A stretch of DNA of 64,000 bases. It comes from Pseudophaeobacter arcticus DSM 23566 (GTDB lineage: Bacteria > Pseudomonadota > Alphaproteobacteria > Rhodobacterales > Rhodobacteraceae). A model generated the notes under the pieces. The model was not told the origin of the DNA. It worked only from the letters and a program-made list of their open reading frames with translations, and searched no databases. The stretch is taken from the NCBI RefSeq assembly GCF_000473205.1, contig NZ_KI421507.1:593934-657933 (forward strand), given 5' to 3'. Position 1 is the first letter of the stretch, and each line of letters starts with the position of its first letter. Positions 29,191 through 45,454 of this stretch are shown in pieces. Both the position numbers and the translations under genes were made by a program.

Positions 29191-29246
29191 TTATCCAAAG
29201 TTAAGAATTGCTTTCCCTTAGTTTTTTCGACTCGGGAGAAAGTAAC

Positions 29247-29327: not shown

Positions 29328-29444
29328 CAGATGCCCTCCAGGGGGCAAGTCCAAAGTCTGAAGTACGTCATACACATACGCCCAAACCCCATGAGGCGCC
29401 TTAAGGCAGCCGGTAGTGAACGTTCCCTGCCTTTGGTAGGTTTT

Positions 29445-29648
29445 GGAATACGCACCTGCATCCCAGGCTGCAAACAGCGCAAGGCAACTGTTCGATACGA
29501 CAAGCGCTGCTACAAACACCGGAACCGCATCGAGATCATGTTCGGGAGGCTGAAAGATTGGCGGCGCGTGGCGACCCGCTATGATCGCTGTCCCAAGGTC
29601 TTCCTCTCAGCCATCGCACTCGCAGCTACGGTCATCTTCTGGGTATGA
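29445..29648 (+). pseudogene. C-terminal remnant of an IS5-type transposase
   Basis: The last 67 codons encode IRTCIPGCKQRKATV, then YDKRCYKHRNRIEIMFGRLK, DWRRVATRYDRCPKVFLS and AIALAATVIFWV before the stop. This is the conserved C-terminus of IS5/DDE_Tnp_1 transposases, with the catalytic Glu in RNRIE. The rest of the gene and a recognisable 5' end are missing, so it cannot move itself. Confidence 0.85.
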
Positions 29649-29919
29649 ACCCTCCCCCTAAAGCACCGCTGCCCCTCCAAAATTGCTCAGAGTTTAGATA
29701 AAAATTTCTTCAAGGTATTTTTTGCTGTGGGTCTCCCGCTTGCTTGGGAATCAACGGATTCAGATTTGAATTATCTAAAATTTTACGTTATGCGCTCTAT
29801 TGGTGTGTTTGATTTGGGAAAAATCTATCCCCGTTTATAACGGGTTGGTCAGACAAAAACTTGACAAAAAACTGAACAACCTGTCTCGTGAATGTGAAAC
29901 GTTTCGCGAGTTTTCCACC

Positions 29920-32061
29920 ATGACCTTGGTCAAAAGCCGATTGCTGATTGCTGGTTCTGTTGCAGTGATCTTTGCATTGTCAGCAATTTTCCTGGCGAGC
30001 AGAGTGATTGAGCTGGATAGAGCTCTCTATGTATTGCCGAGGCAGGTTATACAACTTGAGCGGGCTCTTGGGTATGATGGGTTTATTCACAATTTCAAAA
30101 ATGGGGTTCTCCGTCAGGATGAGAACTACTTTGATAAAGCTGAAGACGACTATGAAGAAATAGTCTCCGCTCTCAAAAGGACAGGCGCCACCGCGCGATC
30201 GGTAGGGCTGCAGGCCGATCTTGCCTCTCTGGAAGCGACATTGTCAGACTACAGAGCGATGATAGACAAGGCCAGGCAACTTCAGCTGACTGGAAAGTCT
30301 GCCGTTGAAGTCGATACTCAGATACGTCTGTCGGACATTGATGCGGCGAAGAACATACGAGCCTTCGAGCTCCAACTGATCAATGCAATGCAGGGACGCA
30401 GATGGCTCTTTGTTGCTGTAGGAGTTGCGTGCTTCAGCGCCTTCGTGCTCACATTGCTGGCATTAACACTGACGCAGGTTCGACTTCGGCACATCGCTGA
30501 AAAGTCACGCGTAAAGGTTCGTGAGAGTGAGGCGGCCCTGCTGCAAGCTGAGCGGATTGCAAGATTAGGTCACTGGAAGGTGCTAAAAAATGGCGCCCTG
30601 CAAACCTCAAAATCAATGCAAGAAATTCTAGCTCTCTCAAGTTCCGATGCTCCAGATACGCTGGAGAAATTCTTTGCTCTATTGCCTGACGCGGACAAGG
30701 TAATGCTGGAAAGCAAGATATCTAAATCCGTTCACCTGCGGAAACCATATACCTGTTTTCACAAAATAAAGATTGCAGAGGGACCGGATCTTTTTGTTGC
30801 AAATACCGGAGAGCCCGTGATCGACGATCAGGGCAATATATATGGTTTTGTTGGCGTTCTTCAGGATATCTCAAGAACGATTGATCTGGAGAGCGAGCTT
30901 CGGCAATCTCAGAAAATGGAGGCTGTTGGGAATTTGGCCGGTGGAATGGCGCATGATTTTAATAATATTCTCGCAGTCATTCTCGGCAATCTTGAGCTGA
31001 TGGAAATAGAGGAAAAGGCAGAGAGCCATTCAGGCTATCGAGCAAACGCGATCCAGGCTGCAAAACGGGGTGCTGAGATCACGAAGAACGTGCTGAGCTT
31101 TGCGAGAAAATCACACCTGGATCCCAAGATTTTGGACGGGAACTCCGTTGTCAGAGAAGTGCTGACTTGGGCAGAACGCCTGCTTCCCGCCAACATAGAA
31201 ATTCAAACATCTCTCCTTGGGTCGATTTGGCCATTTTTGGCGGATGATGCTCTCACCAAGAGCGCACTTCTCAACCTTCTACTGAACGCAAGAGACGCGA
31301 TGCCTGATGGTGGTCGCCTGACGATTGAAACAGCAAACGTTCGACTGGATAATGAATATTTGGATGACAGGAATGAACACATCAAGCCAGGCAGATATGT
31401 CATGTTGGCCATCTCAGATACTGGGACCGGTATAGACCCCCAACATCTCAACGAGATCTTCGAACCGTTCTTTTCAACCAAGCAGGTTGGAAAAGGCTCC
31501 GGCCTCGGGCTCTCCATGGTGCATGGGTTCATGAAACAATCTGGTGGCGCTGTACGCGTTTATTCCGAACTCGGCTCTGGCACGACATTCAAATTGTATT
31601 TCAAGGCGACCCGTCAAGACAGCTCCTTTGACGCTCTGCCAGTGAGGAAAGCCCGTTCTGTCCGTTCAGATGACGCCAAGGTCCTGCTCGTGGAAGACAA
31701 CGCTGCGCTGTTACAGCCACTCGAAGAAATATTGACGGAAGCCGGATACACTGTGACCACGGCGAGAAGTGGAGATGAGGCATTTGCCACTTGGACCGCC
31801 CTGCGAGACTTTGACGTTGTGATCACTGACATCGTAATGCCCGGACAGCTCCAGGGAACACATCTTGCCAGGGAGATCCGGGAGGCTGATCCAATTGTCC
31901 CATTTGTCTTTATGTCCGGTTACGCCAGTGAGGCAATGATCCACGGCAATGGTCTGCAGCCAGAGGACTGTCGATTGATGAAGCCAGTTGGCAGGTCTGA
32001 CCTGCTGGCAGCCATCGACTCGATCCTGGAGGGCAGGCGGGAAAAAGTAACACCAGGTTGA
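29920..32061 (+). CDS. Membrane hybrid sensor histidine kinase with receiver domain
   Basis: The protein has 713 aa from ATG 29920 (the frame is open to 29800). Two membrane helices (about 8-28 and 170-190) flank a helical periplasmic sensor (about 140 aa). A PAS-like domain follows (LQAERIARLGHWKV; DQGNIYGFVGVLQDISR). The HisKA box is GNLAGGMAHDFNNIL (His 345), then the HATPase with NLLLNARDAMP, ISDTGTGID and GSGLGLSMVHGF. The C-terminal receiver has Asp 637 in VVITDIVMPG. Base composition is clearly lower in GC than its neighbours, which with the adjacent integrase debris suggests transfer. It might regulate the RiPP operon downstream, but nothing shows this. Confidence 0.9.
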   Translation: MTLVKSRLLIAGSVAVIFALSAIFLASRVIELDRALYVLPRQVIQLERALGYDGFIHNFKNGVLRQDENYFDKAEDDYEEIVSALKRTGATARSVGLQADLASLEATLSDYRAMIDKARQLQLTGKSAVEVDTQIRLSDIDAAKNIRAFELQLINAMQGRRWLFVAVGVACFSAFVLTLLALTLTQVRLRHIAEKSRVKVRESEAALLQAERIARLGHWKVLKNGALQTSKSMQEILALSSSDAPDTLEKFFALLPDADKVMLESKISKSVHLRKPYTCFHKIKIAEGPDLFVANTGEPVIDDQGNIYGFVGVLQDISRTIDLESELRQSQKMEAVGNLAGGMAHDFNNILAVILGNLELMEIEEKAESHSGYRANAIQAAKRGAEITKNVLSFARKSHLDPKILDGNSVVREVLTWAERLLPANIEIQTSLLGSIWPFLADDALTKSALLNLLLNARDAMPDGGRLTIETANVRLDNEYLDDRNEHIKPGRYVMLAISDTGTGIDPQHLNEIFEPFFSTKQVGKGSGLGLSMVHGFMKQSGGAVRVYSELGSGTTFKLYFKATRQDSSFDALPVRKARSVRSDDAKVLLVEDNAALLQPLEEILTEAGYTVTTARSGDEAFATWTALRDFDVVITDIVMPGQLQGTHLAREIREADPIVPFVFMSGYASEAMIHGNGLQPEDCRLMKPVGRSDLLAAIDSILEGRREKVTPG

Positions 32062-32503
32062 ACAACTGAACCATGACAAACTCAGGTATGTTTGCCCCTC
32101 GACAATGAGGGCGGCAAGATCTGGCTTTTTGGTAAGGCAAATGCATTCCAGCGCAACCCTCGCAGACCATCTGCACCGACGGCCAGGCACCCTCTGCGCC
32201 AAGGCCCGTCAAATAGCAAAACACAGCACAATAGCCTGTGCGCCAGTTTGCTGGATATAGGTTTGCCCAAAGGGTGGCACGAGGCCGGGGTATTCGGCCA
32301 CCCGGTGGACGGAACGTGTGGTCCTCGCTGCAACCGCCCTCGCTGCAACTGCCCTGTGTTGGCTATATGTGGCCTGTACCCGGCAGGCTGTCCAGTTTTG
32401 CAGGACCGGCATCCATCACTGATTAAACTTATCGCAAGGTAACGAGGCCTAGGGTGAGCTGAAACCTCATGAATTTAAAAGCCAACAGCTTTGAAGGCCA
32501 GAC
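32062..32503 (+). other. 442-bp region upstream of the RiPP operon
   Basis: No supported gene. Short frames exist but lack starts or domains. A small direct repeat (CCTCGCTGCAACCG/CCTCGCTGCAACTG, about 32325-32352) is visible. The end of this region probably holds the promoter for the export genes; GAAGG at about 32493 is the ribosome site of the first gene. Confidence 0.4.
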
Positions 32504-33850
32504 ATGCTATCGGACAAGATTAGAAGGTCCGCCCTCAAAAAGGCGCGGTCACCTGAGCAATTGGACGCAATGTTGACCGTGGTTCCCCCCCTTGGGTGGT
32601 TGGCCTCTCTGCTTCTTGTCGCAAGCGTTTTTGCATTTTTGATTTGGGCTTTGGTTGCGACTGCTCCAGTCAAGGTTGACGGCAGCGGCATTCTTTTGAC
32701 GGAGGGGGAAATTGTCGCGGCGCGGGCACAGGGGACCGGCATCGTGGTCGTGCAACCGGTCAAGGTTGGTGACCGGGTGCAAGCGGGCGATTTGCTTGCA
32801 CGCCTGGAAAATTTCAAGATGCAAGAAGGCATTTCGCAGGCCAAGGCCGCTTTGGCCCGGGGCGAAACCATGCTTGCGCAAATCCGCGAGGTGCACCAAA
32901 AATTTGTGGCTTCGCTAGAGGCGGAACTCGCGGATGCCGAGACCTTCCACCAGGACCGGACCAGCAATTTTCGCGACCGCATTGTGAGATTGGCCAAACT
33001 CAGACAAGAGCGTCAGGTGCTTTTTGACAAGGGCTTGATCGTCGAGCAAAAATTGCTGGAGACCCTTCAGGCTCTGGAAGACGCCCGTCAGAACCTCAGC
33101 GCGGCGCAGTTCGACTTTTCTTCAACCCGCACCACGGCGTTGGCAGATATCCATGAATCCCAATCCAATCTTGCCGCCCATGAAAACCAAATACTCACGG
33201 ATCGTGAAAGGCTGAAAGAGCTGCAAGCAGACTATCAGCGCATTGTCGAGATCCGGGCCGCGGCCGCAGGCATTGTGACGGAAAGCACCAAAAGCATCGG
33301 TGATCAGGTCAGCGCCAATGACATCCTCTTTGAAATCCTGCCAGAGGCGGTTGCCGCACCCGCAGGTCAGCCAGCGACCCCTGCATTGCTGGCGGTTCTC
33401 TATGTGGACGCCAGCAATGCAGCCAGGCTGGAGCCGGGTGGCGCAGTTCAGGTGGTGCCTGCATCCGTTGAACTGGAACGCGATGGATTTATTCATGGTC
33501 AGATCATTGAGGCCTCGGTTCTGCCAGCGACGCAGGCGCAGCTGTTAAAGCGTTTGCAGAACCCGGATTTGGTTGCGGCACTGTCGGCAAATGGGCCGGT
33601 TCGGGAGGTTTTGGTAACCCTTGCAGGCGATGCGCGCACGGCCAGCGGGCTTGCCTGGTCCACCCAGGACGGGCCTGCGTTTCGGATCCATCCGGGCACT
33701 TTGACGACGGCCAGTTTTGTGGTCGACCGCAAGCGTATTGCAAGCTTTGTGTTTCCCAAACTGGATGCGCTTCTGCCCGCTCTGGCAGGACGTGGCCCGC
33801 CCCCAGAAACAGTCTCGGTTGCGCAGCCCAAAGCCCGGATTGGGGGCTGA
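32504..33850 (+). CDS. HlyD-like NHLP-type secretion adaptor
   Basis: The protein has 448 aa. One membrane helix (about 30-52: WLASLLLVASVFAFLIWALV) precedes a periplasmic part with a biotinyl-lipoyl-like hairpin (GTGIVVVQPVKVGDRVQAGDLLARL, quoted in part) and a long coiled coil (about 110-245). A beta-rich membrane-fusion region follows. It resembles the adaptor of NHLP (nitrile-hydratase leader peptide) bacteriocin exporters and would link the two ABC proteins encoded next across the periplasm. It is 3 nt from the following gene and heads the operon. Confidence 0.85.
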   Translation: MLSDKIRRSALKKARSPEQLDAMLTVVPPLGWLASLLLVASVFAFLIWALVATAPVKVDGSGILLTEGEIVAARAQGTGIVVVQPVKVGDRVQAGDLLARLENFKMQEGISQAKAALARGETMLAQIREVHQKFVASLEAELADAETFHQDRTSNFRDRIVRLAKLRQERQVLFDKGLIVEQKLLETLQALEDARQNLSAAQFDFSSTRTTALADIHESQSNLAAHENQILTDRERLKELQADYQRIVEIRAAAAGIVTESTKSIGDQVSANDILFEILPEAVAAPAGQPATPALLAVLYVDASNAARLEPGGAVQVVPASVELERDGFIHGQIIEASVLPATQAQLLKRLQNPDLVAALSANGPVREVLVTLAGDARTASGLAWSTQDGPAFRIHPGTLTTASFVVDRKRIASFVFPKLDALLPALAGRGPPPETVSVAQPKARIGG

Positions 33851-33853
33851 GCC

Positions 33854-35998
33854 ATGAAGGGTGCCAAAACTCCCACGATCCTGCAGATCGAAGCCGAAGA
33901 ATGTGGCGCGGCCTCGCTCGCCATGGTCTTGGCCTTTCATGGCCGCCATATTCCGCTTGAGGACCTGCGGATTGAATGCGGCGTCTCCCGTGATGGGGCC
34001 ACCGCAGCCAATGTGTTGAAGGGCGCGCGCCGACATGGGCTAACGGCCAGCGCCAAACGGCTTGAGCTGCCGCGCCTTGCCGAAATTCCCCTGCCTGCGA
34101 TCATCTTTGTGAATATGAACCATTTTGTGGTGCTGGAAGCCGTTTCGGCGCAGCGGTATCGCATTAATGATCCCGCAGCCGGGCGGCGCATTGTTGAGCA
34201 TGAGGCGTTCGACGAGATGTTCACGGGCATCACCCTGTTGCTGGAACCGGGAGAGGCGTTTGAACGCAGACCAGGCCCACCCGGGAAGCTGTCTTCGCTG
34301 CTTGGGTATCTGGAATGGGACCGCACTGCGACCCAGCTTATCCTGCTCTGTGGGATCACCCTGATCGTGCCTGGGCTGGCTATTCCCGCTTTCAGCAAGG
34401 CCTTTGTCGACGATATTTTGATGGATGGGCAGGACGACTGGCTATTCTGGTTTGCAGTCATGATGCTGGCGGTGATTGTCCTTCAGACGGGGCTGATGGC
34501 CCTGCGCAGTTTGCTGAGCGCCAAACTGGAAGCAAAACTGGCCCTGTCGCTGAATGCCAGGCTTGCCTGGCGCTTACTGCGGTTGCCCCTTCCTTTCTTT
34601 CAGCAAAGGTTTTCAGGGGCGCTGGCCGGGCGGGGGCAGATGGCCGCACGGGTGGCGCAACTGGCCGGGAAAAGCCTGGTTGCGGCGACGTTGGAGGGGA
34701 TCACCCTGATCTTCTTTCTCGCGGTCATGGCGCTTTACAGCCTCAAAATGGCGGCGGCAGTGGGCGTTTTGGTTCTGGGCAGCGGCGTGCTGATCCTGGT
34801 GGTGCAGCAGCGCATGGATCAGCTTTCGATCAAGACAATGATCGAATTCATGAAGCTGACCGGCAAGACCATGGTGGGGGTGCAGACGATTGAAAGCATC
34901 AAGTCCTCGGGCACCGAAGGCAAATATTTTGAAGGCTGGGCCGGTACCCATGCCAATGTGGTGAACGGACAGGCCGAGCTGACCCTTCGGCAATCGGTGT
35001 TGCAGGTCACGCCGGGGTTTGTGTCCTTCTTTGGCAAGGCCCTGACCCTGGTGATCGGTGGGCTTGAGGTCATGGCCGGGGAGCTGACGGTGGGATCCCT
35101 GGTGGCCTTCCAGGCCTTGCTCGCGGCGATGGACAGGCCGTTTCAGGGGCTGATGGCCAATGTACAAGAGCTGCAACAAGTGCAGGGACCACTGAACCAG
35201 CTCAGGGATATTACCGGCAGCGCGGAGGCGGGTGAGTTTTCGCAGCGGCGCAACCAGGTGGGGCCAGGGGAGGCATCGCGGTTAAACGGAGCTATCTCAT
35301 TGTCAGATGTGAGTTTTGGCTACAGCCGCTTGTCACCGCCTTTGATTGCCAACCTTGATCTTGAGGTCGCCCCGGGACAACGTATTGCCCTTGTCGGCGG
35401 CTCGGGGAGCGGCAAATCAACCCTGGCCAAGCTGATTACAGGCGCCTATTCGACCTGGTCCGGCCACATCGCCTTTGAGGGGACTTCGATCGAAGATCTG
35501 CCACGCGCGGTCTTGCGGAACTCCCTTGCCGTTGTTGACCAGAATATCGTCCTTTTTGAAGGCAGCTTTGGCGACAACATCCGCCTGTGGGATGAAACCA
35601 TTTCCGACGAGCAGGTGATCGCTGCGGCGCAGGCGGCTGAAATCCATGCGTTCATTGCCGGTACTGAAAACGGTTACGACACGCAGGTCGAAGAAGGCGG
35701 GCGCAATATGAGCGGTGGCCAGCGCCAGCGGCTCGAGATCGCCCGGGCGCTGGCGCGCGATGGCTCCATCCTGGTTCTGGATGAGGCCACAAGTGCCCTA
35801 GACCCCATCGTCGAGGCAAAGGTGATGCAAAATATTGCCCGGCTGGGGATCACCTGTGTGATCGTGGCCCACAGGTTGTCGACCATTCGTGATTGCGATC
35901 AGATTCTGGTGTTGGATCATGGCAGTGTTGTGCAACGGGGAACGCACCAAGGCCTGCGCGATGTGGAGGGTCCCTATCAGAGGATGATCGCCGCATGA
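33854..35998 (+). CDS. Peptidase-containing ABC exporter for a double-glycine peptide
   Basis: The protein has 714 aa. An N-terminal C39 peptidase (1-135) has the catalytic Cys 17 in EAEECGAASLAM, His 90 in NMNHFVVLE and Asp 106 in INDPAAGRR; all three are intact. Six membrane helices follow (about 155-430). The ATPase has Walker A GGSGSGKST, signature MSGGQRQR and Walker B ILVLDEATS. It should cut the precursor leader after the double glycine while exporting the core. It overlaps the next gene by 4 nt (ATGA). Confidence 0.95.
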   Translation: MKGAKTPTILQIEAEECGAASLAMVLAFHGRHIPLEDLRIECGVSRDGATAANVLKGARRHGLTASAKRLELPRLAEIPLPAIIFVNMNHFVVLEAVSAQRYRINDPAAGRRIVEHEAFDEMFTGITLLLEPGEAFERRPGPPGKLSSLLGYLEWDRTATQLILLCGITLIVPGLAIPAFSKAFVDDILMDGQDDWLFWFAVMMLAVIVLQTGLMALRSLLSAKLEAKLALSLNARLAWRLLRLPLPFFQQRFSGALAGRGQMAARVAQLAGKSLVAATLEGITLIFFLAVMALYSLKMAAAVGVLVLGSGVLILVVQQRMDQLSIKTMIEFMKLTGKTMVGVQTIESIKSSGTEGKYFEGWAGTHANVVNGQAELTLRQSVLQVTPGFVSFFGKALTLVIGGLEVMAGELTVGSLVAFQALLAAMDRPFQGLMANVQELQQVQGPLNQLRDITGSAEAGEFSQRRNQVGPGEASRLNGAISLSDVSFGYSRLSPPLIANLDLEVAPGQRIALVGGSGSGKSTLAKLITGAYSTWSGHIAFEGTSIEDLPRAVLRNSLAVVDQNIVLFEGSFGDNIRLWDETISDEQVIAAAQAAEIHAFIAGTENGYDTQVEEGGRNMSGGQRQRLEIARALARDGSILVLDEATSALDPIVEAKVMQNIARLGITCVIVAHRLSTIRDCDQILVLDHGSVVQRGTHQGLRDVEGPYQRMIAA

Positions 35999-38793
35999 GC
36001 GCACAGCCCCAAGCCGCTGCACAGCGCCCGCTGCACAGGGCCGATCAGGACATGGTGGCGTACGACGACGGCGCGCATGTCTCTTTGCAGGGGGCAAACC
36101 GGTGTTTCCTGATCAAAAACGGGCGTCTGGATCTCGCCATAGTCTGCGGTGACCAGTCACAGGTCATAGCAGAGATGGTTGAGGGCGAGATCATTCTCGG
36201 TCTGGAGGGCAGGATTGGGCTGTCTGGTCGGGCGCGCGGCGATCTGCGGCTGTGCCCGATAGAGCTGTCTGTCTATTGCAGCCCGGATGCAGATCCCGAG
36301 CAAAGACTGCACCGCGCGCTGAGCCTTGATATCTGGCTGGCGCGTCTCAACAATATTGCGCAGGAATATCAGCAGGGGAGGGCGCCGACAGATCAGGCTG
36401 TGGTGGCGCAGGGCATTACTTGGGTCAAAGGCCCAGATGGCGCAGAGGCGCTCCCGAGACCACATTTTCCACAAGATGGCAGTCCAAACTCTGTGTTTGC
36501 CCGCGATACCGAGGCTCTTTTGGCAAGGCCCAGGGCCGCCGCTGCCATTGCGGCGGCCAATGGGCACCTGGCGCAGGCCATTGCCGCCGGGGGCCAAAGC
36601 AAAAGTGAGGCCTTGATCCGGCGGCGCGCGCAGCAGGTAACACAGGACGCAGCCCGCCTGGACCGTGCTTTTGGACAGCTGAGCGCGTCCCTGTCGGCGA
36701 CAGGGGCAGCAGCACAGCAGGGAGATAGCGGTGCTCAGGCGGCAGCTGGGTTCAGCCAGATTGCGCATCTCGCCAAGCGGGTAGGCCTGGGCCTGTCTGC
36801 GGTTGACAATTCCAAGGGTCTGACCGGACGGGACTATATTTGCGCCCTGTGCGAGGCCAACAACATTCGCTACCGCTCAATCACGCTGACGGAAAAATGG
36901 TGGCGCAAGGACTGCGGTGACTTTGTCGCATTTGATGGCGACGGGCAGGTTCTCACGGTTATGCGAGAGACCAGATCCTATGTAGTGCAGGATGCCAATG
37001 GGGAGAAACGGCGTTTTTGTCCCGAGATGGCAGCGACTTGGGAGGGGCAGGGGCTGTTTCTCTATTGGCCGCTTCCAGATCAGCCCGTCACTGGCTGGGA
37101 TTTGATCGGGCGGGTGTTTCGCATCTGCGCCTCGGATCTTTGGACCGTCTTTGCGGTCAGCCTGGCCATGAGCCTCTTGGCACTGGTGCTGCCAATTGGT
37201 GCGGGCATTCTGGTTGGCAAAATCATTCCGCAGGAAAGTCAGGCGCTTTTGGTGCAGCTTGGCGTGATCCTTGCCCTGGTTGCGATGGTGCAATTTGCCA
37301 TCGGCATTATTTCCCAGATTGCGGCAGCCAGGATTGAAACCCGCGCGACGCTTTGGATCCAGGGATCCGTCATGGACCGGATATTACGCCTGCCCACCGG
37401 GTTCTTTCGCAGCTACTCATCGGGGGAGCTGACCCAGCGCGCCCTGGCGATCAGCCGATTGGAGCGGCTGGTGACCAATGGCATGATTACCGGCGTCCTG
37501 TCGGGACTGTTTTCGTTCCTGAGCTTTGGCTTGATGTTTCATTTTGCCCCCGGACTTGTGCTGCCCGCGCTCGGGGCAGCAGCCGTTTTTATCACCATTG
37601 CCGCCTTTCTGGGCCGGGCAGAAACAGCTGCCGCCCGCAGTCAGATTCTGACCAGCGGGCCCGTTATTGCCCGTATGATGGATATTGCGCAGGGCATTGA
37701 AAAACTGCGCTTTGCCGCCGCCGAGGCGCCTGCATTTGAACGCTGGACACAGGCCTTTCAGCTGCAACAATCGGCGGCCTACCGGGAAAAGCGTATGGCG
37801 GCATTGATGGAGACCTTTAGTGGCTCCTTCCTTGCGACGGCCACATTGATGGTCTTTGTGGTGATTGGACTGCGCGGCAGTGAAAATGAATTCTCCACGG
37901 CCAGTCTGGTCAGTTTTCTGACATGTTTTGCCAGCTTCATGACTGGGCTGGGCCATTTGACCCGCACGGCGACGCAGCTGGCAAGCTTTAAGCCGATCTA
38001 TGACTTTGCAGCCCCCATTCTGCAAGCTGTCCCCGAAAACAGTCAGGGCGGTACCGATCCCGGCGCGCTCCTGGGGGAGTTCTCGCTCACCAATCTGCGC
38101 TTTGCCTACAAAGACCAGGGGCCGATGATCCTGGATGGGCTAAGCCTGACAATCGGAGCTGGCGAATATGTGGCGCTGGTCGGGGACTCGGGCTGCGGGA
38201 AATCGACCCTGCTGCGGCTGCTTATGGGGTTTGAGACTCCAAAGTCAGGGTCTGTCAGCCTGGACAAAATCGACCTGCGAAATATCGACAAACGCTTGAT
38301 GCGGCGACAGTTTGGTGTGGTCATGCAGGATGCCAAACTGCTGCCTGGCTCAATCTATGACAATATCGTCGGCACCAATTTTGGCATGCCGATGGAGCAG
38401 GTGAGCAGGGCCATTCGTCAGGTGGGACTAGCAGACGACATTCAGCAGATGCCCATGGGGTTACAAACCGGGGTTGTTGAATCATCTGGTGGTCTGTCTG
38501 GTGGCCAGGTTCAGCGCATCATGCTGGCCCGCGCCATTGCTGCCAGCCCCAGGGTTCTGTTGCTGGATGAAGCGACAAGTGCTTTGGACAACCGGACACA
38601 GTCCATTGTGACCGAAACGCTGGACGGGATGACGGCGACGCGGATTGTCGTGGCGCATCGGCTGTCCACGGTGGTGAAAGCTGACAAGATCATCGTGCTG
38701 GATCATGGCCAGGTGGTAGAGGTCGGAGACTATGACAGCCTGATGGCGCTGGAGGGCAAATTTGCGTCCCTGGCACAGCGCCAGCTTGTCTGA
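35995..38793 (+). CDS. Second NHLP-type ABC exporter with long N-terminal region
   Basis: ATG 35995 overlaps the previous stop; the frame extends to 35893, inside the previous gene. The protein has 932 aa. A 370-residue N-terminus without C39 catalytic residues may be a degraded or substrate-binding part (Trp-rich TEKWWRKDCGDFVAF). A six-helix membrane domain (about 385-690) and ATPase follow, with GDSGCGKST, GGLSGGQVQRIML and VLLLDEATSALD. It pairs with the C39 exporter and HlyD adaptor, as in other NHLP export loci, where it is the companion permease/ATPase. Confidence 0.92.
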   Translation: MSAQPQAAAQRPLHRADQDMVAYDDGAHVSLQGANRCFLIKNGRLDLAIVCGDQSQVIAEMVEGEIILGLEGRIGLSGRARGDLRLCPIELSVYCSPDADPEQRLHRALSLDIWLARLNNIAQEYQQGRAPTDQAVVAQGITWVKGPDGAEALPRPHFPQDGSPNSVFARDTEALLARPRAAAAIAAANGHLAQAIAAGGQSKSEALIRRRAQQVTQDAARLDRAFGQLSASLSATGAAAQQGDSGAQAAAGFSQIAHLAKRVGLGLSAVDNSKGLTGRDYICALCEANNIRYRSITLTEKWWRKDCGDFVAFDGDGQVLTVMRETRSYVVQDANGEKRRFCPEMAATWEGQGLFLYWPLPDQPVTGWDLIGRVFRICASDLWTVFAVSLAMSLLALVLPIGAGILVGKIIPQESQALLVQLGVILALVAMVQFAIGIISQIAAARIETRATLWIQGSVMDRILRLPTGFFRSYSSGELTQRALAISRLERLVTNGMITGVLSGLFSFLSFGLMFHFAPGLVLPALGAAAVFITIAAFLGRAETAAARSQILTSGPVIARMMDIAQGIEKLRFAAAEAPAFERWTQAFQLQQSAAYREKRMAALMETFSGSFLATATLMVFVVIGLRGSENEFSTASLVSFLTCFASFMTGLGHLTRTATQLASFKPIYDFAAPILQAVPENSQGGTDPGALLGEFSLTNLRFAYKDQGPMILDGLSLTIGAGEYVALVGDSGCGKSTLLRLLMGFETPKSGSVSLDKIDLRNIDKRLMRRQFGVVMQDAKLLPGSIYDNIVGTNFGMPMEQVSRAIRQVGLADDIQQMPMGLQTGVVESSGGLSGGQVQRIMLARAIAASPRVLLLDEATSALDNRTQSIVTETLDGMTATRIVVAHRLSTVVKADKIIVLDHGQVVEVGDYDSLMALEGKFASLAQRQLV

Positions 38794-38987
38794 TTTTGGC
38801 ATTCTGCACGAAATAATTGCGCAGGATCCCTCAAAAAGCACGCATTCCAACAGGCCCTTTGAAACTAATTAACCCTTTTCATTTTATCGTCTCCTCACAA
38901 TACCATCGCGCCTTTTGCTCCGGTGGGCCTATTTGTCATGCCACCTTTGGGCAGGGACCTTTTAAAACTTCACGTAAGGAACTTATT

Positions 38988-39272
38988 ATGTCGAATTGGA
39001 CCGAAGAAGATCAACATACTGCCATCTCCGCTTTGATGGAGCGCTGCGCAAGTGATGCGAATTTCTATCAGAGCGCCCTTGCTGATCCTGCCGCAGCAAT
39101 CAAAACTGTGTCCGGCAAGGCTCTGCCCGAAGGTTTCAATCTGCGGCTGGTGGCCAATGAGGGCGCAGATCTGACTCTGGTCCTGCCCGACCCGGTGAGC
39201 GAAGACCTGTCCGATGCGGATCTGGAAGCTGTCGCTGGTGGTGGTCGCAGCTGCACCGTCACCATTATGTAA
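38988..39272 (+). CDS. Nitrile-hydratase-leader RiPP precursor peptide
   Basis: The protein has 94 aa from ATG 38988, 7 nt after AAGGA; the frame is open to 38817 but that part is not family-like. Residues 10-70 resemble nitrile hydratase alpha subunit leaders (FYQSALADPAAAIKTVSGKA; LPEGFNLRLVANEGADLTLV). The end of the leader is LSDADLEAVAGG. The likely core is GRSCTVTIM (86-94), or RSCTVTIM if cut after Gly 86. It has one Arg, one Cys, one Ser and two Thr. The single Arg suits the arginase-like gene two positions downstream. A 195-bp gap upstream may contain its own promoter. Confidence 0.9.
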   Translation: MSNWTEEDQHTAISALMERCASDANFYQSALADPAAAIKTVSGKALPEGFNLRLVANEGADLTLVLPDPVSEDLSDADLEAVAGGGRSCTVTIM

Positions 39273-39376
39273 TCCGCGACGGATCAAGCGCTCCGGCTGG
39301 CCGCGTCAGCGCCCGGCCGGATCACGCGCCGCGCCTCTGGCTGAGGCCGGCCCAGATTTTTCCTGAGGGTCGTTCT

Positions 39377-40357
39377 GTGACAGTCCCGTTTTCCACGCCT
39401 GCAGTGTCGCCCTGTCCGCCCTATAGTATTCAACCCATTGATCCTTGGCTGGCCCAATCGGCGGCGGCTGTGGTTTTTCCGCATTTTGCAAAACACCTGA
39501 ACGGTACAGATCCGGCAATCATCCGATTGGCGGCTGTCGCAGGCGCGGATAGCGCAACAAAAACGCGGGTTTTGGGAGCCGTTCTGGTTGAAATCGGCCA
39601 GGTTGAAATCGGCCAGGTTGATATCGCCAAGACCAGCGCCACGGTTCTGTCGCTGGCTGTGACCCCAGAGTTTCGTCGCAATGGCATCGCCAGGGCGTTG
39701 CTGGAACGGGCTTTGGAGCAGGCCAGAATACAGGGGGCCAAACGGGCCTGCCTGTCGTTTGTGTCCCGGATGCCCCAGGTCACCGCATTGAAAGCTTTGC
39801 TGCACAGTGCAGGCTGGTCGGAACCGGCCCCACGGATACTGTTTGCAGAAACGGCGCCGCTGCAGGTGTTGCAACAGGCCTGGGCGCAGCGGGTGCTGCA
39901 CCGGGGACCGCGCAATGCCACCGCCTTTGACTGGAGCGACCTGACGCCAGAAGACCGCAGCTATATTGAGGTTGAAACAGCAGCCGGGCGCTACCCGCAG
40001 GATGTGTCCCCTTTCTGGGATGAGGGCAATATCGCCCCGATCAGCCTGGGCCTGCGGGCTGCGGATGGGCGCGTGGTGGGCTGGCTGGCCTGCCATTTTG
40101 TACCGCAGCGGTCCGGCACCATCCGGTTTAGCCGCAGCTTTTGCCATGCGGATCCCGCCTTTCGCGGCAACGGCGCCTGGGTCATGGCAGCGGCGCTGGA
40201 GCGTCACGTAAACAGCAGCCTGCACCAAAGCCACCCGACTGTTCTTTTTGATGTGGATGCGCGCAACAAGGCGATGATGACTGTCTATAGACGCCGGATA
40301 GAGCCCTACATCGACACCTCATATCAAAGTTTTGTTGTGGCAAAGGATTTATGCTGA
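39377..40357 (+). CDS. Tandem GNAT acyltransferase of the RiPP operon
   Basis: The protein has 326 aa from GTG 39377 (GAGGG 8 nt upstream). Two GNAT domains are visible. The first has the CoA-pyrophosphate motif RRNGIARALLERAL (about 100-113). The second has AFRGNGAWVMAAALE (about 255-270) and DVDARNKAMMTVYRR. In selidamide-type RiPP loci, as I recall, GNAT maturases attach fatty acyl groups to ornithine or lysine side chains; here the substrate would be the modified Arg of the precursor. A 15-bp in-frame repeat (39587-39631) encodes VEIGQVEIGQVDI. The next gene overlaps it by 7 nt. Confidence 0.85.
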   Translation: MTVPFSTPAVSPCPPYSIQPIDPWLAQSAAAVVFPHFAKHLNGTDPAIIRLAAVAGADSATKTRVLGAVLVEIGQVEIGQVDIAKTSATVLSLAVTPEFRRNGIARALLERALEQARIQGAKRACLSFVSRMPQVTALKALLHSAGWSEPAPRILFAETAPLQVLQQAWAQRVLHRGPRNATAFDWSDLTPEDRSYIEVETAAGRYPQDVSPFWDEGNIAPISLGLRAADGRVVGWLACHFVPQRSGTIRFSRSFCHADPAFRGNGAWVMAAALERHVNSSLHQSHPTVLFDVDARNKAMMTVYRRRIEPYIDTSYQSFVVAKDLC

Positions 40358-41322
40358 CCATGGTGCACCAGCCCCCCCTTTCGCAGCAGACAGACAGGCC
40401 AAACCCCATCCCGGTGATCGGGTTTGAAGAGCACAACGAGGCCCTGATTGCGCTTGCCTGGGCGCGCGAGAATGCCCTGCTGGGCAAGCTGCCTGCGCGC
40501 CTTTTGCATGTAGATCAACATCAGGATCTGGTGGTGCCGCAGCTTAGCCGGACGATTGCCGATACGCCGCTGACGGTTGCGGCTATCAAGAACCTGGTGG
40601 AGACCGAGATCTCTATCGCGAGCTTCGTCTGGGCCGGGGTCTATCTGGGACTTCTGGATGAGATGTTCTGGCTTGCGCCCAAACCCGCCATTGCCGGCGC
40701 GCGGCCGCGCTCGGTCCTGCCCAGCAAGTACCTGTGGATTGCCACCACGGATACGCAGCGACGTGAGATGATTACGATGGTGCAGCGCCCCGAAGCCCGT
40801 GGCGTGGGCAATGACGACCGCAAATCTATGGCGTTGCATTTTGTCGATACCGAGACCCAGATCCCCGAACAGCCCGGCCCGGAGGCCGCTCCTTGGGTGC
40901 TGGGGATTGATCTGGATTATTTCTCCTGCAACAGCATGCCGGACAACGGGTTTCGCATCAGTGTCACCCAGGAAACCTACGAGCAGGTCTCAACCAACCG
41001 CCACCACCCGCTGCGCCTGTCGCCGTCGCACCGGATTGAGGCCCGTCACGATGAACAGGGCTACTGGCTGGAATATGACATGTTGCCCCCCCGCAGCGCT
41101 GATCCGCTTGTGCGCAGCACCACAGAGATCGAGGCCGAGGTCGACAGGCTGGCGGCGATGTTGTCGCGGCAAGCGCAGGCCCCCGCGTTGATCCTGATCG
41201 CCCGCTCACAGATCAGCGGATTTACCCCCCGCCACCAATGTGAATTCATCGAGGCGCGGGTCAAGGACATGCTGGCCTCGGTCTATCCCTGCACAATTCT
41301 GGAAGGATCCGACCTATGGTGA
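40351..41322 (+). CDS. UPF0489 protein, likely peptide arginase
   Basis: The protein has 323 aa from ATG 40351, with AAAGGA closely upstream. UPF0489 signatures are LLHVDQHQDLVVP (His 53, Asp 55, His 57, Asp 59) and LGIDLDYFSC (Asp 186, Asp 188). Asp-x-His-x-Asp plus a later Asp-x-Asp matches the Mn ligands of the arginase fold. OspR, the peptide arginase of landornamide biosynthesis, belongs to this family as I recall; it turns core Arg into ornithine. The precursor here has exactly one core Arg, so the same reaction is predicted. Confidence 0.85.
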   Translation: MLTMVHQPPLSQQTDRPNPIPVIGFEEHNEALIALAWARENALLGKLPARLLHVDQHQDLVVPQLSRTIADTPLTVAAIKNLVETEISIASFVWAGVYLGLLDEMFWLAPKPAIAGARPRSVLPSKYLWIATTDTQRREMITMVQRPEARGVGNDDRKSMALHFVDTETQIPEQPGPEAAPWVLGIDLDYFSCNSMPDNGFRISVTQETYEQVSTNRHHPLRLSPSHRIEARHDEQGYWLEYDMLPPRSADPLVRSTTEIEAEVDRLAAMLSRQAQAPALILIARSQISGFTPRHQCEFIEARVKDMLASVYPCTILEGSDLW

Positions 41323-42176
41323 GTGCTACTTCACCCAACCCGCAGGCGTCAGAGGCCAGCGCGCAGGGGCAAAGCATCGCGCGTCGCAATCGCCTTTCGG
41401 CCTCTGATTTGAACCGCGCCTTCCTCAGCCGTGGCAGCTCTCAGCCTGTGGTACTGACGGGATTAACCGATGGCTGGCCCGCGATGGAGCGCTGGAGCTT
41501 TGACCATTTTGCCAAAACCTATGGGGATGAGCGGGTCATCGTGACCGATTTTCTGGGCTCAAAGAACCTCCACAAGGTCGGCTTTGGCCGCTATCTGGAC
41601 TATGTGCGGGATCCTTCGCTGGATCTTCTGCCGGGCAAGCAGGCCAAGACCCCCTGGTATTCCCCCTATTGGTCACCTTTTGTGGATCACCCGGAGCTAG
41701 CAGCCGATTTTGATGTCTCTGAGGTGGTAGAGAACTGGATGCCGGATGCCAGCGCGATTGAGGCCTCTGACGGGTCCAGCGAGGCGCTGATGGCGCAGTG
41801 GGTGCTGCGCGGGTTTTCCTGGCTGTTCATCGGTCCGGCCGGGACCTATACGCCCCGGCATCTGGACACGCTGAACACCCATGCCTGGAACACCCAGATT
41901 TGCGGGCGCAAACGGTTTGATCTCTGGGCCCCAGGTCGCCCGGCACAGGACGAAACACCGGATCTTCAGGTGGTGCTTGAACCGGGCGAGACACTCATTA
42001 TTCCAATGGGGTGGGCCCATGCCGTGGGGGCGCTTGAGGCGTCGATCAGTCTCACCGGGAATTTCTTCAACGCCACCAATAGCGCTGCGTTTTTCCGCAC
42101 CATCTACACCCAGCCAGAGGTCTGGCAGGCCAAGGCGCGTCTTGTTCCGGCGCTAAAGGCGCAGCTGGCACCATGA
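41316..42176 (+). CDS. JmjC/cupin_8 Fe(II)/2-oxoglutarate hydroxylase
   Basis: The protein has 286 aa with GAAGG 8-12 nt before ATG 41316. It is a cupin-like (JmjC, asparaginyl/FIH-type) domain: PVVLTGLTDGWPAMERW; the iron facial triad His 182-x-Asp 184 in TPRHLDTLNTH and His 235 in IPMGWAHAVG; and a 2-oxoglutarate-binding region around RKRFDLWAPG. In this operon it likely hydroxylates the precursor, for example the ornithine made from Arg, but the target is inferred. It overlaps both neighbours by a few bases. Confidence 0.87.
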   Translation: MVSATSPNPQASEASAQGQSIARRNRLSASDLNRAFLSRGSSQPVVLTGLTDGWPAMERWSFDHFAKTYGDERVIVTDFLGSKNLHKVGFGRYLDYVRDPSLDLLPGKQAKTPWYSPYWSPFVDHPELAADFDVSEVVENWMPDASAIEASDGSSEALMAQWVLRGFSWLFIGPAGTYTPRHLDTLNTHAWNTQICGRKRFDLWAPGRPAQDETPDLQVVLEPGETLIIPMGWAHAVGALEASISLTGNFFNATNSAAFFRTIYTQPEVWQAKARLVPALKAQLAP

Positions 42177-45100
42177 CTGCGGCCCAGCCTGCAGGGATCT
42201 GCGACGGGGCTGTGGGCCTTGTGCAGCAGGTGGCGGAAATAGTCGCCCGCGCCCAGACCCTGGAAGAGCGGCTGGCCAGATCTGGGCTGTCGGATCAACC
42301 CTGGCCACAGCATCAGCAGGCCGAAATGGTCCAAAGCTGGCGGCAGATCTGCGGCCAGGGAGATCCGGGGGATTTCCGTAAACGCCTGGCGTGGTCCGGT
42401 CTCACCCCAGCGCGGCTGGAGGCCTATCTGGGTGATCCACCAGCCATCCCGCGCAGCCAGTGGCCGGATTGGGCAGAGGTGCTGCTCGATGTGTTATCGA
42501 CGCCCCGCGCTGATGCACGTGCCAGCGCAAATCCTGCCACCCATTCAGCCCATCCCTTTGCCGCGATTCTGGCAGGATTTTCCGGCTATGCCGCGCAGCA
42601 TTTGCAAACCGTCTATGATGATATCTCCAAGGCGCTGGGCTGCGACAGCCGTGCCCGCCTGCAAGATGGGCTGCTCCGCCGCCTATGCGATGTGGCCGTG
42701 CAGGCATTGATGGCCGAGTTTCAGATCTTTCGCAGGGCGCGGCTTGCCGGGACCATGGTGCTGCCGGGCGCGCATCAGGCCTATGATGCCTTTGTTACAT
42801 CCCTGCAGGATCGGGCGGGTTTGCTGGGGCTTTTTCAGAAATATCCTGTGCTTGCGCGGCTTCTGGCCACGGTCCTGCAACAATGGGTTGGATTTGTTCG
42901 CACATTCCGTGACCGACTGTTGGCCGATCTGCCGCTGCTGGAGCAGGCATTTGGCTTTGGCGGGTCTGCCCTGCTGGAACTGGCGGGCTCTGATCCGCAT
43001 CAGGGGGGCCAAGTCTGTGTGAAACTGGTGCCGCAGGCCGGGCCTGCTGTGTTCTACAAACCAAAACCGCTGCAGCCGGAGCTGGTGTTTGAAGCGTTCC
43101 AAGCACATCTGGCCGCGCTGCTTGGCCGTCCTATGCGCTGCCGTGGGGAGACCCTGGATCGCGGTCTGTACGGCTGGAGCAAGCAGGTCGTGCCCGCCGC
43201 CTGTCGCGATGCGGCAGAAGTAGCCTCTTTCTTTCGCGCCAGCGGGCATCTTTTGTTTGGCCAGTACCTGTTGGGTGGCGCGGATATTCACTGTGACAAC
43301 CTGATTGCGGCGGGGGCGGTGCCGGTCATCATTGATCAGGAATGTCTGATGACCAATTGGCCAGCACCCAGTGGTGATCAGGTCCCGGCAGGTGTTGCCG
43401 CTGTGCGTGCGATGGTTTTTGAAACCGTGGTGCGGACCTCTATGTTGCCGGAGTGGAATGACGCCATTGACGGGTGGCCGCTCGACATCAGCGCATTTGG
43501 CGGCACAGGTGGTCCCGAAAAACGAACGCCAGAGCTGATGGTTCTGCACATGAACTCGGACCTGATGCGGCTGGTGCGCAGGGTCACACCTGCTGAGCGG
43601 GGCATGGCCCATCTGCCCCGCTATGGCGGCAATATGATAGATCCGGCTGATCACGTTGATGATATTTTGCAAGGGTTTTCAGAAGCCTACCAAGCACTGC
43701 GCCGCGCGCCGGAATTGCCTGCCGGGCTGGTCAAAACCCTGCAGTCTGTGCGCGCCCGGGTGGTGTTGCGGCAGAGCCGCGCCTATGGCGAGCGGCTGAC
43801 ACGCCTGTGCGCGCCTGCCAATCTGCGCAATGGCTTTGCTGCGCAACTCTCCATGGAGAGCCTGTTTCAATCCCTTTTGCAGGACCCGGCCACGGCGGAC
43901 AGCCTGGTGCCCGTTGTCAAAAGCGAGTTTGCCCAACTGATGAAGATGGACGTGCCGGTGCTGCACGCCCAGGCCAATGGCCGCGCCATCCAGCTGCCAT
44001 GCAAAAGTGAGGTTCGGGAGGTATTTCCAGCCTCCGCCATGGAGACCCTCAAAGCGCGGATTGCCCGGTTGGGCGACAAGGACCTGGCGCTGCAAAGGCA
44101 AAAAATCCTCACCAGTTTTGCCTGTCACCAACGGTTGGGGGCGGATTGCTCGGCTTGGGTGCAACACAAAGGGCAACGCCCCCTGGCAAATGACATGCTG
44201 CCCGCCGCGGATCAGCCTTCAGCTGCAGTGCTTGAACGCATGGGGGATGATCTGCTGGCACAGGCCATTCGTGGCACGGAGGGCTCTCTTGCCTGGCATG
44301 CGCCAGTGTATAAGGAAAACATCGGCGCCTGGCGTATGTCCCCGCTGCGCGAGCGGGTGTTTGATGGCGCGCTTGGCATTGCCTTGTTCCTGGCGGCTCT
44401 GACGCGGCACAGCGGCAAGAAACACTATCTGCAAGCGGGGCTGAATGGGATTTCAAACCTGCTTGAGAGTGCAGATCGGGCCGCTACGGTGCGTATGCTG
44501 ATGGCCCCGGGGCTGGGCTGTGGCACCGGAGTGGGGTCGGCGATCTACGGTCTGGTGCAGCTTGCGCGGATCAGCGGCCAAGATCACCTGGCCGATGTGG
44601 CACGGGATGTTTTCTACCGGGTTGAGGATCTCCGCAGCGACGACACTCCCCGCACCGCAAAACAGGACTACGGCCTGTCTACCGGCCTGTCCGGCTATCT
44701 GAATGCCTGTTTGGTGTTGGACCAGCATCAACCCGGCGATGCCCGGGTGCTGCGGGCACTGCAGGACTGTGTGGCGCAGATTGCCGGGGCGGCGGTCCCT
44801 GATCAGGCGGGAGGCACCCATTGGCCCTCGCCTCATAGCCTGTCGCCTCATGGCCCTGGGCCGCATGGTTTTGCCCATGGCAGCGCAGGGGTCGCAACGG
44901 TGCTGCTGCGCGCGGCACGACACCTGCAGGACGAGCGGCTTCTGGACCTTGGCCGCCGTGGCCTCCGCTTTGCTCTGCGTCAGGAGCAGGAGGGGGATCT
45001 CAGCTGGAAAACCGGTGGCATGGGGCTTTGTATCGCGGTGCAGGAGGCCCTGACTGTATCGGATGCACAGGATTTGGATTTGCAGAACTGGCATGAGCGG

Positions 45101-45400
45101 CAGATGGGGGCTCTCAGCCATCACTCTGGGCTCGTGCTGGATGATCTGAGTTTTGGGGAGGCCGCCCGGGCTTCGGTCCTGCAGCGCAGCGTCGATATGT
45201 GCGCCCGCCCTGATTTGGCTGCGGATGTCAGGCGGGCCTATCGTCGGCTATGGGGTCGTGCGGACAAAGGGGGCTTTGAGTTCGGCTGGCCCGCGGGGGT
45301 AGCACTCCCCGGCTTTTTCCAAGGCACCGCCGGGATCGGATATCAGTTGTTGCGTCGTGACTTTGATGTGACGCTGCCGGATGTCTTTGCCTTCTCATAA
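42173..45400 (+). CDS. LanM-type lanthipeptide synthetase with degenerate cyclase zinc site
   Basis: The protein has 1075 aa, starting at ATG overlapping the previous stop. The N-terminal dehydratase (DUF4135) half looks active: VFYKPKPLQPE, GGADIHCDNLIAAGAVPVII and IDQECLM retain the catalytic Asp, His, Asn and Glu. The LanC-like half keeps GFAHGSAGVATVLLRAAR and PGFFQGTAGIGYQLL. But SWC-x-G reads SWKTGG (Lys 946) and the C-H-G motif reads SFG (993-995), so all three zinc ligands are missing. It can probably dehydrate Ser/Thr, but enzyme-driven thioether formation is doubtful. It ends the operon. Confidence 0.9.
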   Translation: MTAAQPAGICDGAVGLVQQVAEIVARAQTLEERLARSGLSDQPWPQHQQAEMVQSWRQICGQGDPGDFRKRLAWSGLTPARLEAYLGDPPAIPRSQWPDWAEVLLDVLSTPRADARASANPATHSAHPFAAILAGFSGYAAQHLQTVYDDISKALGCDSRARLQDGLLRRLCDVAVQALMAEFQIFRRARLAGTMVLPGAHQAYDAFVTSLQDRAGLLGLFQKYPVLARLLATVLQQWVGFVRTFRDRLLADLPLLEQAFGFGGSALLELAGSDPHQGGQVCVKLVPQAGPAVFYKPKPLQPELVFEAFQAHLAALLGRPMRCRGETLDRGLYGWSKQVVPAACRDAAEVASFFRASGHLLFGQYLLGGADIHCDNLIAAGAVPVIIDQECLMTNWPAPSGDQVPAGVAAVRAMVFETVVRTSMLPEWNDAIDGWPLDISAFGGTGGPEKRTPELMVLHMNSDLMRLVRRVTPAERGMAHLPRYGGNMIDPADHVDDILQGFSEAYQALRRAPELPAGLVKTLQSVRARVVLRQSRAYGERLTRLCAPANLRNGFAAQLSMESLFQSLLQDPATADSLVPVVKSEFAQLMKMDVPVLHAQANGRAIQLPCKSEVREVFPASAMETLKARIARLGDKDLALQRQKILTSFACHQRLGADCSAWVQHKGQRPLANDMLPAADQPSAAVLERMGDDLLAQAIRGTEGSLAWHAPVYKENIGAWRMSPLRERVFDGALGIALFLAALTRHSGKKHYLQAGLNGISNLLESADRAATVRMLMAPGLGCGTGVGSAIYGLVQLARISGQDHLADVARDVFYRVEDLRSDDTPRTAKQDYGLSTGLSGYLNACLVLDQHQPGDARVLRALQDCVAQIAGAAVPDQAGGTHWPSPHSLSPHGPGPHGFAHGSAGVATVLLRAARHLQDERLLDLGRRGLRFALRQEQEGDLSWKTGGMGLCIAVQEALTVSDAQDLDLQNWHERQMGALSHHSGLVLDDLSFGEAARASVLQRSVDMCARPDLAADVRRAYRRLWGRADKGGFEFGWPAGVALPGFFQGTAGIGYQLLRRDFDVTLPDVFAFS

Positions 45401-45454
45401 GGGGGGTGACGCCCTGAAATGATATGGCCTTCGGGATCTGTGCCAGAGTGCAGA

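What the first reader, a model, noticed from the sequence alone, without database searches (positions are those of the whole stretch)
32504..45400. Complete RiPP pathway combining LanM, peptide arginase, GNAT and JmjC enzyme
Eight same-strand genes with overlaps encode an NHLP-type leader precursor, a C39 exporter, a second ABC exporter, an HlyD adaptor and four modifying enzymes. The set predicts an exported peptide carrying (hydroxy)ornithine, an acyl group and dehydrated residues. From memory, selidamides such as phaeornamide from an arctic Phaeobacter use a GNAT plus arginase logic, so this locus may be the same or a close variant rather than new. Gene identity is seen in the sequence; the product is inference.
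Basis: partly seen in the sequence, partly recalled or inferred. Interest (0 to 1): 0.9.

Follow-up and report, generated by a model that had tools for sequence, protein, structure and literature searches.

The report
The published phaeornamide lipopeptide gene cluster
This is the already described gene cluster with which an Arctic marine bacterium makes phaeornamide, a small ribosomal peptide carrying a fatty acid; the one unexpected detail is that its ring-forming enzyme seems to have lost the zinc site such enzymes normally need.

Summary
In detail: eight same-strand genes at 32504-45400 encode HlyD adaptor, C39 exporter, second ABC exporter, NHLP precursor, GNAT, peptide arginase, JmjC/Cupin_8 oxygenase and LanM. 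That strain's phaA/R/M/I/N/T1-T3 cluster makes phaeornamide: MeLan ring, 4-hydroxyornithine acylated with 3-hydroxydecanoate, leader cut at Gly-Gly-Gly (review PMC9505594). Strain, gene set and cut motif (AVAGGG|RSCTVTIM) agree. So this is the phaeornamide cluster itself: already known. The primary paper is not held and was not read.

One side result deserves a look. The LanC-like half of this LanM lacks all three zinc ligands (K946, S993, F994), which 16 of 16 aligned alphaproteobacterial comparators keep. The domain is under purifying selection (dN/dS 0.25-0.28) and is the only LanC-like match in the genome, yet a MeLan ring is reported. Either this is a metal-free class II cyclase, or the ring closes without cyclase chemistry.

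The parts
32504..33850 (+). HlyD-type periplasmic adaptor of an NHLP exporter (448 aa); one of phaT1-T3
   Evidence: TIGR03794 223.2 bits over cut-off 156.2; 79% identical in both relatives
33854..35998 (+). C39 peptidase/ABC exporter (714 aa), expected to cut the leader after Gly-Gly(-Gly); one of phaT1-T3
   Evidence: PF03412 and TIGR03796 865.8 bits over cut-off 853.3; candidate C39 catalytic motifs EECGAA, MNHF, NDPA present (motif roles recalled)
35995..38793 (+). second NHLP-type ABC exporter permease/ATPase (932 aa from ATG 35995); one of phaT1-T3
   Evidence: TIGR03797 704.1 bits, 5 bits under cut-off; ATGA overlap with the preceding stop; in L004 the ORF itself starts at the matching ATG
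38988..39272 (+). precursor PhaA, 94 aa: NHLP leader ending AVAGGG, core RSCTVTIM
   Evidence: TIGR03793 49.7 bits, 1.2 under cut-off; core identical in 3 of 3 genomes, dN/dS about 0.02 against the two relatives; GGG cut motif as reported for PhaA
39377..40357 (+). GNAT N-acyltransferase (326 aa), PhaN
   Evidence: PF00583 46.4 bits over cut-off 20.7; one Q/RxxGxG/A P-loop match, RRNGIA at residue 100
40351..41322 (+). OspR-type peptide arginase (323 aa), PhaR
   Evidence: PF12640 43.6 bits; matches OspR structure 8brp, E 2.5e-30 over residues 20-314; motifs EEHNEAL, DQHQD, LGIDLDYFSC against those listed in PMC12703449
41316..42176 (+). JmjC/Cupin_8 Fe(II)/2-oxoglutarate oxygenase (286 aa), PhaI, reported to hydroxylate the ornithine
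   Evidence: PF13621 58.3 bits; nearest solved relatives by sequence JMJD6 and JMJD5; HxD 182-184 and distal His 235 (roles recalled)
42173..45400 (+). class II lanthionine synthetase LanM (1075 aa), PhaM; cyclase half without zinc ligands
   Evidence: TIGR03897 489.7 bits over cut-off 304; DUF4135 224-598 and LANC_like 726-1062; K946/S993/F994 at ligand positions, G834 at the Asp position
44348..45358 (+). LanC-like cyclase domain of PhaM (residues 726-1062) lacking the canonical Zn site
   Evidence: AlphaFold2 model of residues 640-1075, mean pLDDT 83.8, matches LicM2, CylM, LanCL and NisC by Foldseek

Best explanation
This is the phaeornamide (selidamide) biosynthetic gene cluster of Pseudophaeobacter arcticus DSM 23566T. 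The NHLP precursor PhaA (core RSCTVTIM) is modified at Arg1: the peptide arginase makes ornithine, the JmjC oxygenase makes 4-hydroxyornithine, and the GNAT attaches a 3-hydroxydecanoyl chain. PhaM dehydrates a core Thr, and the Cys adds to it to give one MeLan ring. The C39 exporter cuts at Gly-Gly-Gly and exports the lipopeptide with the second ABC protein and the HlyD adaptor. Shown here: genes, order, conserved motifs, strain identity. Taken from the review: product structure and order of steps. Inferred: that Arg1 is the modified residue (it is the only Arg in the core) and which Thr forms the ring (Thr6 is likelier than the adjacent Thr4).
For: Genome size 5,049,234 in 6 contigs of 4,215,469; 279,892; 228,923; 203,324; 92,209; 29,417 against published 5,049,232 and 4,215,469; 279,891; 228,923; 203,324; 92,209; 29,416 (PMC3910698, passages read). 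That paper lists Phaar_00595 as a LanM homologue and Phaar_00590 among four exporter homologues, five locus numbers apart; this fits exporter 2 if the precursor is annotated, or exporter 1 if it is not. Cluster content and chemistry in PMC9505594, section 8 read: phaA NHLP, phaR OspR-like, phaM type II synthetase, phaI Fe/2OG hydroxylase, phaN GNAT, phaT1/T2/T3, Gly-Gly-Gly cut motif. All eight functions found at 32504-45400.
Against: The primary paper (recalled as Hubrich et al., PNAS 2022) is not held, so PhaA and the Pha enzymes were not compared letter by letter with the deposited sequences; identity rests on strain identity plus gene content. Only one LanM match was found in this genome, which leaves little room for another locus.
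Confidence: 0.97

Rival explanations
1. A close variant: same pathway type in another species, with a different core and product.
For: Such relatives exist: L004 (MAG contig CAJQNB010000062.1) and G401 carry the cluster at 78-93% protein identity outside the precursor.
Against: The window's own genome matches the type strain replicon by replicon, and even the two relatives have the identical core.
Confidence: 0.02
2. PhaM's cyclase half is a genuine metal-free cyclase, functionally like class III LanKC domains, and closes the MeLan ring enzymatically (a sub-hypothesis about one enzyme in the cluster).
For: Zn-ligand positions are K946/S993/F994, while 16 of 16 aligned comparators have C, C, C/H; His902 and Trp945 are kept. 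The domain is constrained (dN/dS 0.25-0.28 against the relatives, like the dehydratase half), keeps the LanC fold in the model, and is the only LanC-like match in the genome. A MeLan ring is reported, and E. coli-made phaeornamide carried the native fatty acid (PMC13060382). ThurKC cyclizes with S/F/D at these positions (PMC10604976).
Against: ThurKC needs Phe770 and Asp771; PhaM has no matching Asp, and its Phe sits one position later. The Asp141-equivalent is also lost (G834). Between the two close relatives alone the cyclase half is less constrained than the dehydratase half (dN/dS 0.32 vs 0.11, few changes), and they differ from the window at the second ligand (C vs S). Ring stereochemistry and cyclization without PhaM's second half are unknown to me.
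Confidence: 0.4
3. PhaM only dehydrates; Cys3 adds to the dehydrobutyrine without enzymatic catalysis, and the LanC-like half survives as a peptide-holding scaffold.
For: Loss of all three ligands and of the Asp position; one short ring with Cys upstream of Thr; weaker constraint on the cyclase half between the two close relatives (0.32 vs 0.11). PMC13060382 notes that non-enzymatic (methyl)lanthionine formation occurs and often loses stereochemical control.
Against: Addition to Dhb is slow (recalled), and against the window the cyclase half is constrained as strongly as the dehydratase half, though a scaffold would also be constrained.
Confidence: 0.45

Closest known systems
Phaeornamide cluster, Pseudophaeobacter arcticus DSM 23566 (selidamide)
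   Same: Strain, gene set (phaA/R/M/I/N/T1-T3), NHLP precursor, GGG cut motif
Cluster in uncultured Pseudophaeobacter MAG (L004, CAJQNB010000062.1; G402 has the arginase on a contig of the same length) and unnamed G401 (L042)
   Same: Same eight genes, same order, identical core RSCTVTIM, LanM lacking the first and third zinc ligands
   Different: 78-93% protein identity outside PhaA; second ligand still Cys; different left flank
Nostolysamides (NpuA/M/N, Nostoc punctiforme)
   Same: Class II synthetase plus GNAT acylating a side chain (PMC13060382, passages)
   Different: Nif11 leader, Lys acylated, C16 favoured; the passages name three genes, no arginase among them; NpuM keeps three Cys zinc ligands
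Kamptornamide (Kamptonema)
   Same: Selidamide with acylated ornithine (PMC12703449, passage)
   Different: Four ornithines, one carrying dodecanoic acid; cluster not compared here
Landornamide / OspR peptide arginase
   Same: Homologous arginase; structure 8brp matched at E 2.5e-30
   Different: Landornamide A carries two unmodified ornithines
ThurKC, class III metal-free lanthionine synthetase
   Same: LanC-like domain with the zinc ligands replaced (S726/F770/D771), including a Phe (PMC10604976, one section and passages)
   Different: Class III kinase/lyase architecture; PhaM is a DUF4135 class II enzyme and has K/S/F
CA_C0082 clostridial LanM-like proteins
   Same: LanM-like without zinc motif (PMC10301443, passages)
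   Different: Also lack dehydratase residues; C. acetobutylicum has no other known lanthipeptide genes; acts as an Agr effector

Membership tests
Selidamide (phaeornamide) cluster | GNAT acyltransferase next to a RiPP precursor | tested here: met
   PF00583 in P0005, 104 bases after the precursor
Selidamide (phaeornamide) cluster | peptide arginase of pfam12640 | tested here: met
   PF12640 over cut-off, 8brp match, three motifs. The narrower NF052474 model is matched at 178 bits, under its 350 cut-off
Selidamide (phaeornamide) cluster | Fe(II)/2OG hydroxylase (phaI) | tested here: met
   Cupin_8/JmjC with HxD...H
Selidamide (phaeornamide) cluster | source organism P. arcticus DSM 23566 | tested here: met
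   six of six replicon lengths agree within 1 base
Selidamide (phaeornamide) cluster | side-chain fatty acylation of (hydroxy)ornithine in the product | not testable with these tools
   reported in PMC9505594, no mass data here
Selidamide (phaeornamide) cluster | PhaA sequence identical to the published one | not testable with these tools
   primary paper not held
NHLP precursor (TIGR03793) | leader over the model cut-off | tested here: inconclusive
   49.7 bits, cut-off 50.9; the query was an ORF extended upstream of the likely start
Class II lanthionine synthetase (LanM) | DUF4135 dehydratase fused to LANC_like domain | tested here: met
   TIGR03897 489.7 over 304; PF13575 and PF05147 over cut-off
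Class II lanthionine synthetase (LanM) | zinc ligands Cys, Cys, Cys/His in the cyclase domain | tested here: not met
   K946, S993, F994; 16 of 16 aligned comparators have them, and LicM2, CylM and LanCL2 align there with WC and CHG
Class III lanthionine synthetase (LanKC) | lyase plus Ser/Thr kinase domains N-terminal to LanC | tested here: not met
   no kinase Pfam domain at E <= 0.001; NF038151 43.3 bits against cut-off 575

The most novel reading that the evidence does not exclude
PhaM is a metal-free class II lanthionine cyclase: a LanM that lost all zinc ligands and the catalytic Asp, yet closes the MeLan ring of a characterized natural product, a metal-free solution separate from class III LanKC enzymes.
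Probability: 0.4. Interest if true: 0.55.

Novelty: already known. Interest (0 to 1): 0.25.

Why it matters
As a cluster it adds nothing new beyond confirming that a reader recognised phaeornamide from raw DNA. [quoted passage not shown] A working class II enzyme without it would allow a direct test of what the metal is needed for and how a MeLan ring with an upstream Cys closes.

Tried and rejected
New RiPP class: rejected, see strain and gene match. Close variant in another species: rejected by replicon lengths. Plasmid or phage carriage: no match of the arginase (tblastn) or of window 32420-45425 (megablast) in 72,556 plasmid records, and no viral-contig match of the arginase patterns; these collections may leave out records of the own genome, but the cluster is on its 4.2 Mb contig. 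A separate LanC closing the ring in trans: only one LANC_like match in the genome at E<=1, PhaM itself. Wider spread: arginase query in 394 family genomes gave the own genome plus one 85-residue match at E 9e-4 with an internal stop, not counted as a relative; NF052474 in 390 order genomes gave 1, the own; the GNAT at E<=1e-8 in 398 phylum genomes gave 3, the own and two at 26 and 31% identity, not followed up. The genome-contig scan with the arginase gave one locus, L004.

Error made: I cut the precursor two bases too far right, so the 73-74% 'PhaA' values printed there come from a wrong frame and are void; the right frame (38988-39272) is used from then on. In one search the L042 LanM end was set without its stop codon; harmless to the counts.

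Rows dropped before the zinc-site count: one search lists 27 rows. One search used 11 distinct proteins that blastp with PhaM had returned. Still left out: the own gene (L016), duplicates or second pieces of the same genes (L033, L036, L038, L039), the dehydratase-side hits L029 and L037, the weak hits L030-L032, and L024 (246 aa, not aligned; by eye it reads WCHG and LYHG, so it may lack the second Cys). Five of the 16 come from one genus (L013, L014, L022, L034, L035), L017/L018 from another and L026/L027 from a third, so they are not independent. The added five weaken the Asp point: Asp in 11 of 16, Glu in 4, Pro in 1; His in 14 of 16.

Structure comparison with VIA-align was not available.

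Full report
Observation. ORF listing and translation confirm eight same-strand genes at 32504-45400. Family searches identify HlyD adaptor, C39 peptidase/ABC exporter, second ABC exporter, NHLP-type precursor, GNAT, PF12640 arginase, Cupin_8/JmjC oxygenase and LanM. Two starts need correcting: the second exporter begins at ATG 35995 in an ATGA overlap, and the precursor at 38988. The precursor reads 94 aa and ends AVAGGGRSCTVTIM. Three scores fall just or clearly under curated cut-offs: exporter 2 (704.1 vs 709.4), leader (49.7 vs 50.9) and the narrow arginase model NF052474 (178.1 vs 350).

Enzyme integrity. The arginase has EEHNEAL, DQHQD and LGIDLDYFSC, against the three motifs given for pfam12640 in PMC12703449 (passage; positions), and aligns with OspR structure 8brp over residues 20-314. 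The oxygenase has HxD 182-184 and His 235 (roles recalled), and its nearest solved relatives by sequence are JMJD6 and JMJD5. The GNAT has one match to the P-loop pattern Q/RxxGxG/A, in its N-terminal half (residue 100), in line with the tandem GNAT described for NpuN (PMC13060382, passage).

Identity. The window is G000:C6:593934-657933; G000 has 5,049,234 bases in 6 contigs, with lengths 4,215,469; 279,892; 228,923; 203,324; 92,209; 29,417. The genome paper of Phaeobacter (now Pseudophaeobacter) arcticus DSM 23566T gives 5,049,232 bp and 4,215,469; 279,891; 228,923; 203,324; 92,209; 29,416, and mentions LanM homologue Phaar_00595 and exporter homologue Phaar_00590 (PMC3910698, passages). The phaeornamide review describes, for this strain, these eight functions and a Gly-Gly-Gly cut motif in PhaA (PMC9505594, section 8 read). 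The genome gives one LanM match and one peptide arginase match. I conclude that the locus is the phaeornamide cluster. The primary paper is not held; its title and authorship are recalled.

Mechanism. From the review: arginase first, then hydroxylation, then acylation, with MeLan formation to some extent independent; cutting and release by PhaT. The core here has one Arg, one Cys and two Thr, which suits one acylated hydroxyornithine and one MeLan ring with Cys upstream of Thr; Thr6 is my inference.

Distribution. The arginase query finds 3 of 12 genus genomes: own, G401 and G402. G402's contig has the same length as that of MAG locus L004, 55,329, so I take them as the same record. In 394 family genomes only the own genome is a credible match; by NF052474, 1 of 390 order genomes. 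Between the window and the two relatives, PhaA is 97.9% identical with dN/dS about 0.02 and an identical core, while the other proteins are 78-93% identical with dN/dS 0.09-0.28. The peptide is thus conserved more strictly than its enzymes.

Site. In G399, where the arginase query found nothing, the tRNA-Leu gene (L053 13132-13283) is followed 480 bases later by the orthologue of the AMP-ligase gene that flanks the cluster on the right. In the window 16.3 kb lie between them: a hybrid histidine kinase and the cluster. In G401 the tRNA is 39 kb upstream of the cluster, with an 89% copy of the last 18 bases of the tRNA and the 77 bases after it in between. The cluster thus sits in a variable tRNA-side island. 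Four other cluster-less genomes (G394, G395, G397, G400) share only the AMP-ligase side with the window in the stretches fetched, and G395's stretch stops at a contig end, so the empty site rests on one genome.

The odd LanM. In the LanC-like half the three zinc-ligand positions are K946, S993 and F994, and the Asp position is G834; His902 and Trp945 are kept. Both relatives have K, C, F and G. Sixteen of 16 other alphaproteobacterial LanM or LanC-like proteins aligned have C, C, C/H (11 on the alignment, 5 more). The Asp position is less telling: D in 11, E in 4, P in 1 of 16; the His is kept in 14 of 16. These come from few genera, and one partial protein, L024, was not aligned and may lack the second Cys (see Tried and rejected). 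A profile of 14 sequences aligns the ligand columns with WC and CHG in LicM2, CylM and LanCL2. The model of residues 640-1075 (mean pLDDT 83.8) matches LicM2, CylM, LanCL, NisC and, more weakly, ThurKC by Foldseek. dN/dS of this half is 0.25-0.28 between the window and its relatives, like the dehydratase half at 0.28; between the two close relatives it is 0.32 against 0.11, from few changes, which speaks for weaker constraint there. No other LANC_like match exists in the genome at E <= 1. PMC10604976 states that class I, II and IV cyclases need the metal and that class III lacks it.

Is the zinc loss in print? Whether the primary paper remarks on PhaM's site I cannot tell. Searches 'LanM / zinc ligands / lack / cyclase domain' (5 papers), 'class II lanthipeptide / zinc-binding residues / lacks / LanC' (1), 'class II lanthipeptide synthetase / metal-independent / cyclization', any two (15 of 55 listed), and 'lanthipeptide / LanM / without zinc' (0) gave no paper that, from its listing or the passages I read, reports a product-making class II enzyme without zinc ligands. 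Of those listed I opened five, in passages or one section: PMC10604976, PMC10301443, PMC7268733, PMC13060382, PMC9934072. The open choice is between a metal-free cyclase and unassisted ring closure; I give 0.40 and 0.45.

Verdict. Already known as a cluster; interest 0.25, carried by the zinc-site detail.

Noticed in passing
window 44348-45358 (PhaM residues 726-1062): LanC-like half of the LanM lacks all three zinc ligands, yet is under purifying selection against its relatives and a MeLan product is reported.
   Followed up: yes
window 29104-45454: Cluster plus a hybrid histidine kinase (29800-32061; GC 0.50 at 30001-32000) occupy 16.3 kb between tRNA-Leu(gag) and an AMP-ligase gene; in cluster-less G399 480 bases separate the same two genes. 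In G401 an 89% copy of the tRNA 3' end and following bases lies between tRNA and cluster.
   Followed up: partly
window 49105-60645: About 11.5 kb absent at this place from both cluster-bearing relatives: a branched-chain-amino-acid-type ABC operon with Peripla_BP_6, BPD_transp_2, a flotillin-like gene and an AMP-binding enzyme.
   Followed up: no
window 56381-58801 +: 806-aa protein with an ABC ATPase domain (45-189) fused to an amidase domain (381-787), inside that operon; the pairing looks uncommon to me (recalled, not searched).
   Followed up: no
window 27129-28916 +: Caspase-like (Peptidase_C14) protein with a peptidoglycan-binding domain, just before the tRNA-Leu gene.
   Followed up: no
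window 39377-40357, GNAT residues 72-83: The GNAT has an EIGQVEIGQVDI stretch, a short in-frame repeat, where the two relatives have a 10-residue gap.
   Followed up: no
L024 (246-aa frame): A partial alphaproteobacterial LanC-like protein that reads WCHG and LYHG, so by eye it may lack the second zinc Cys.
   Followed up: no
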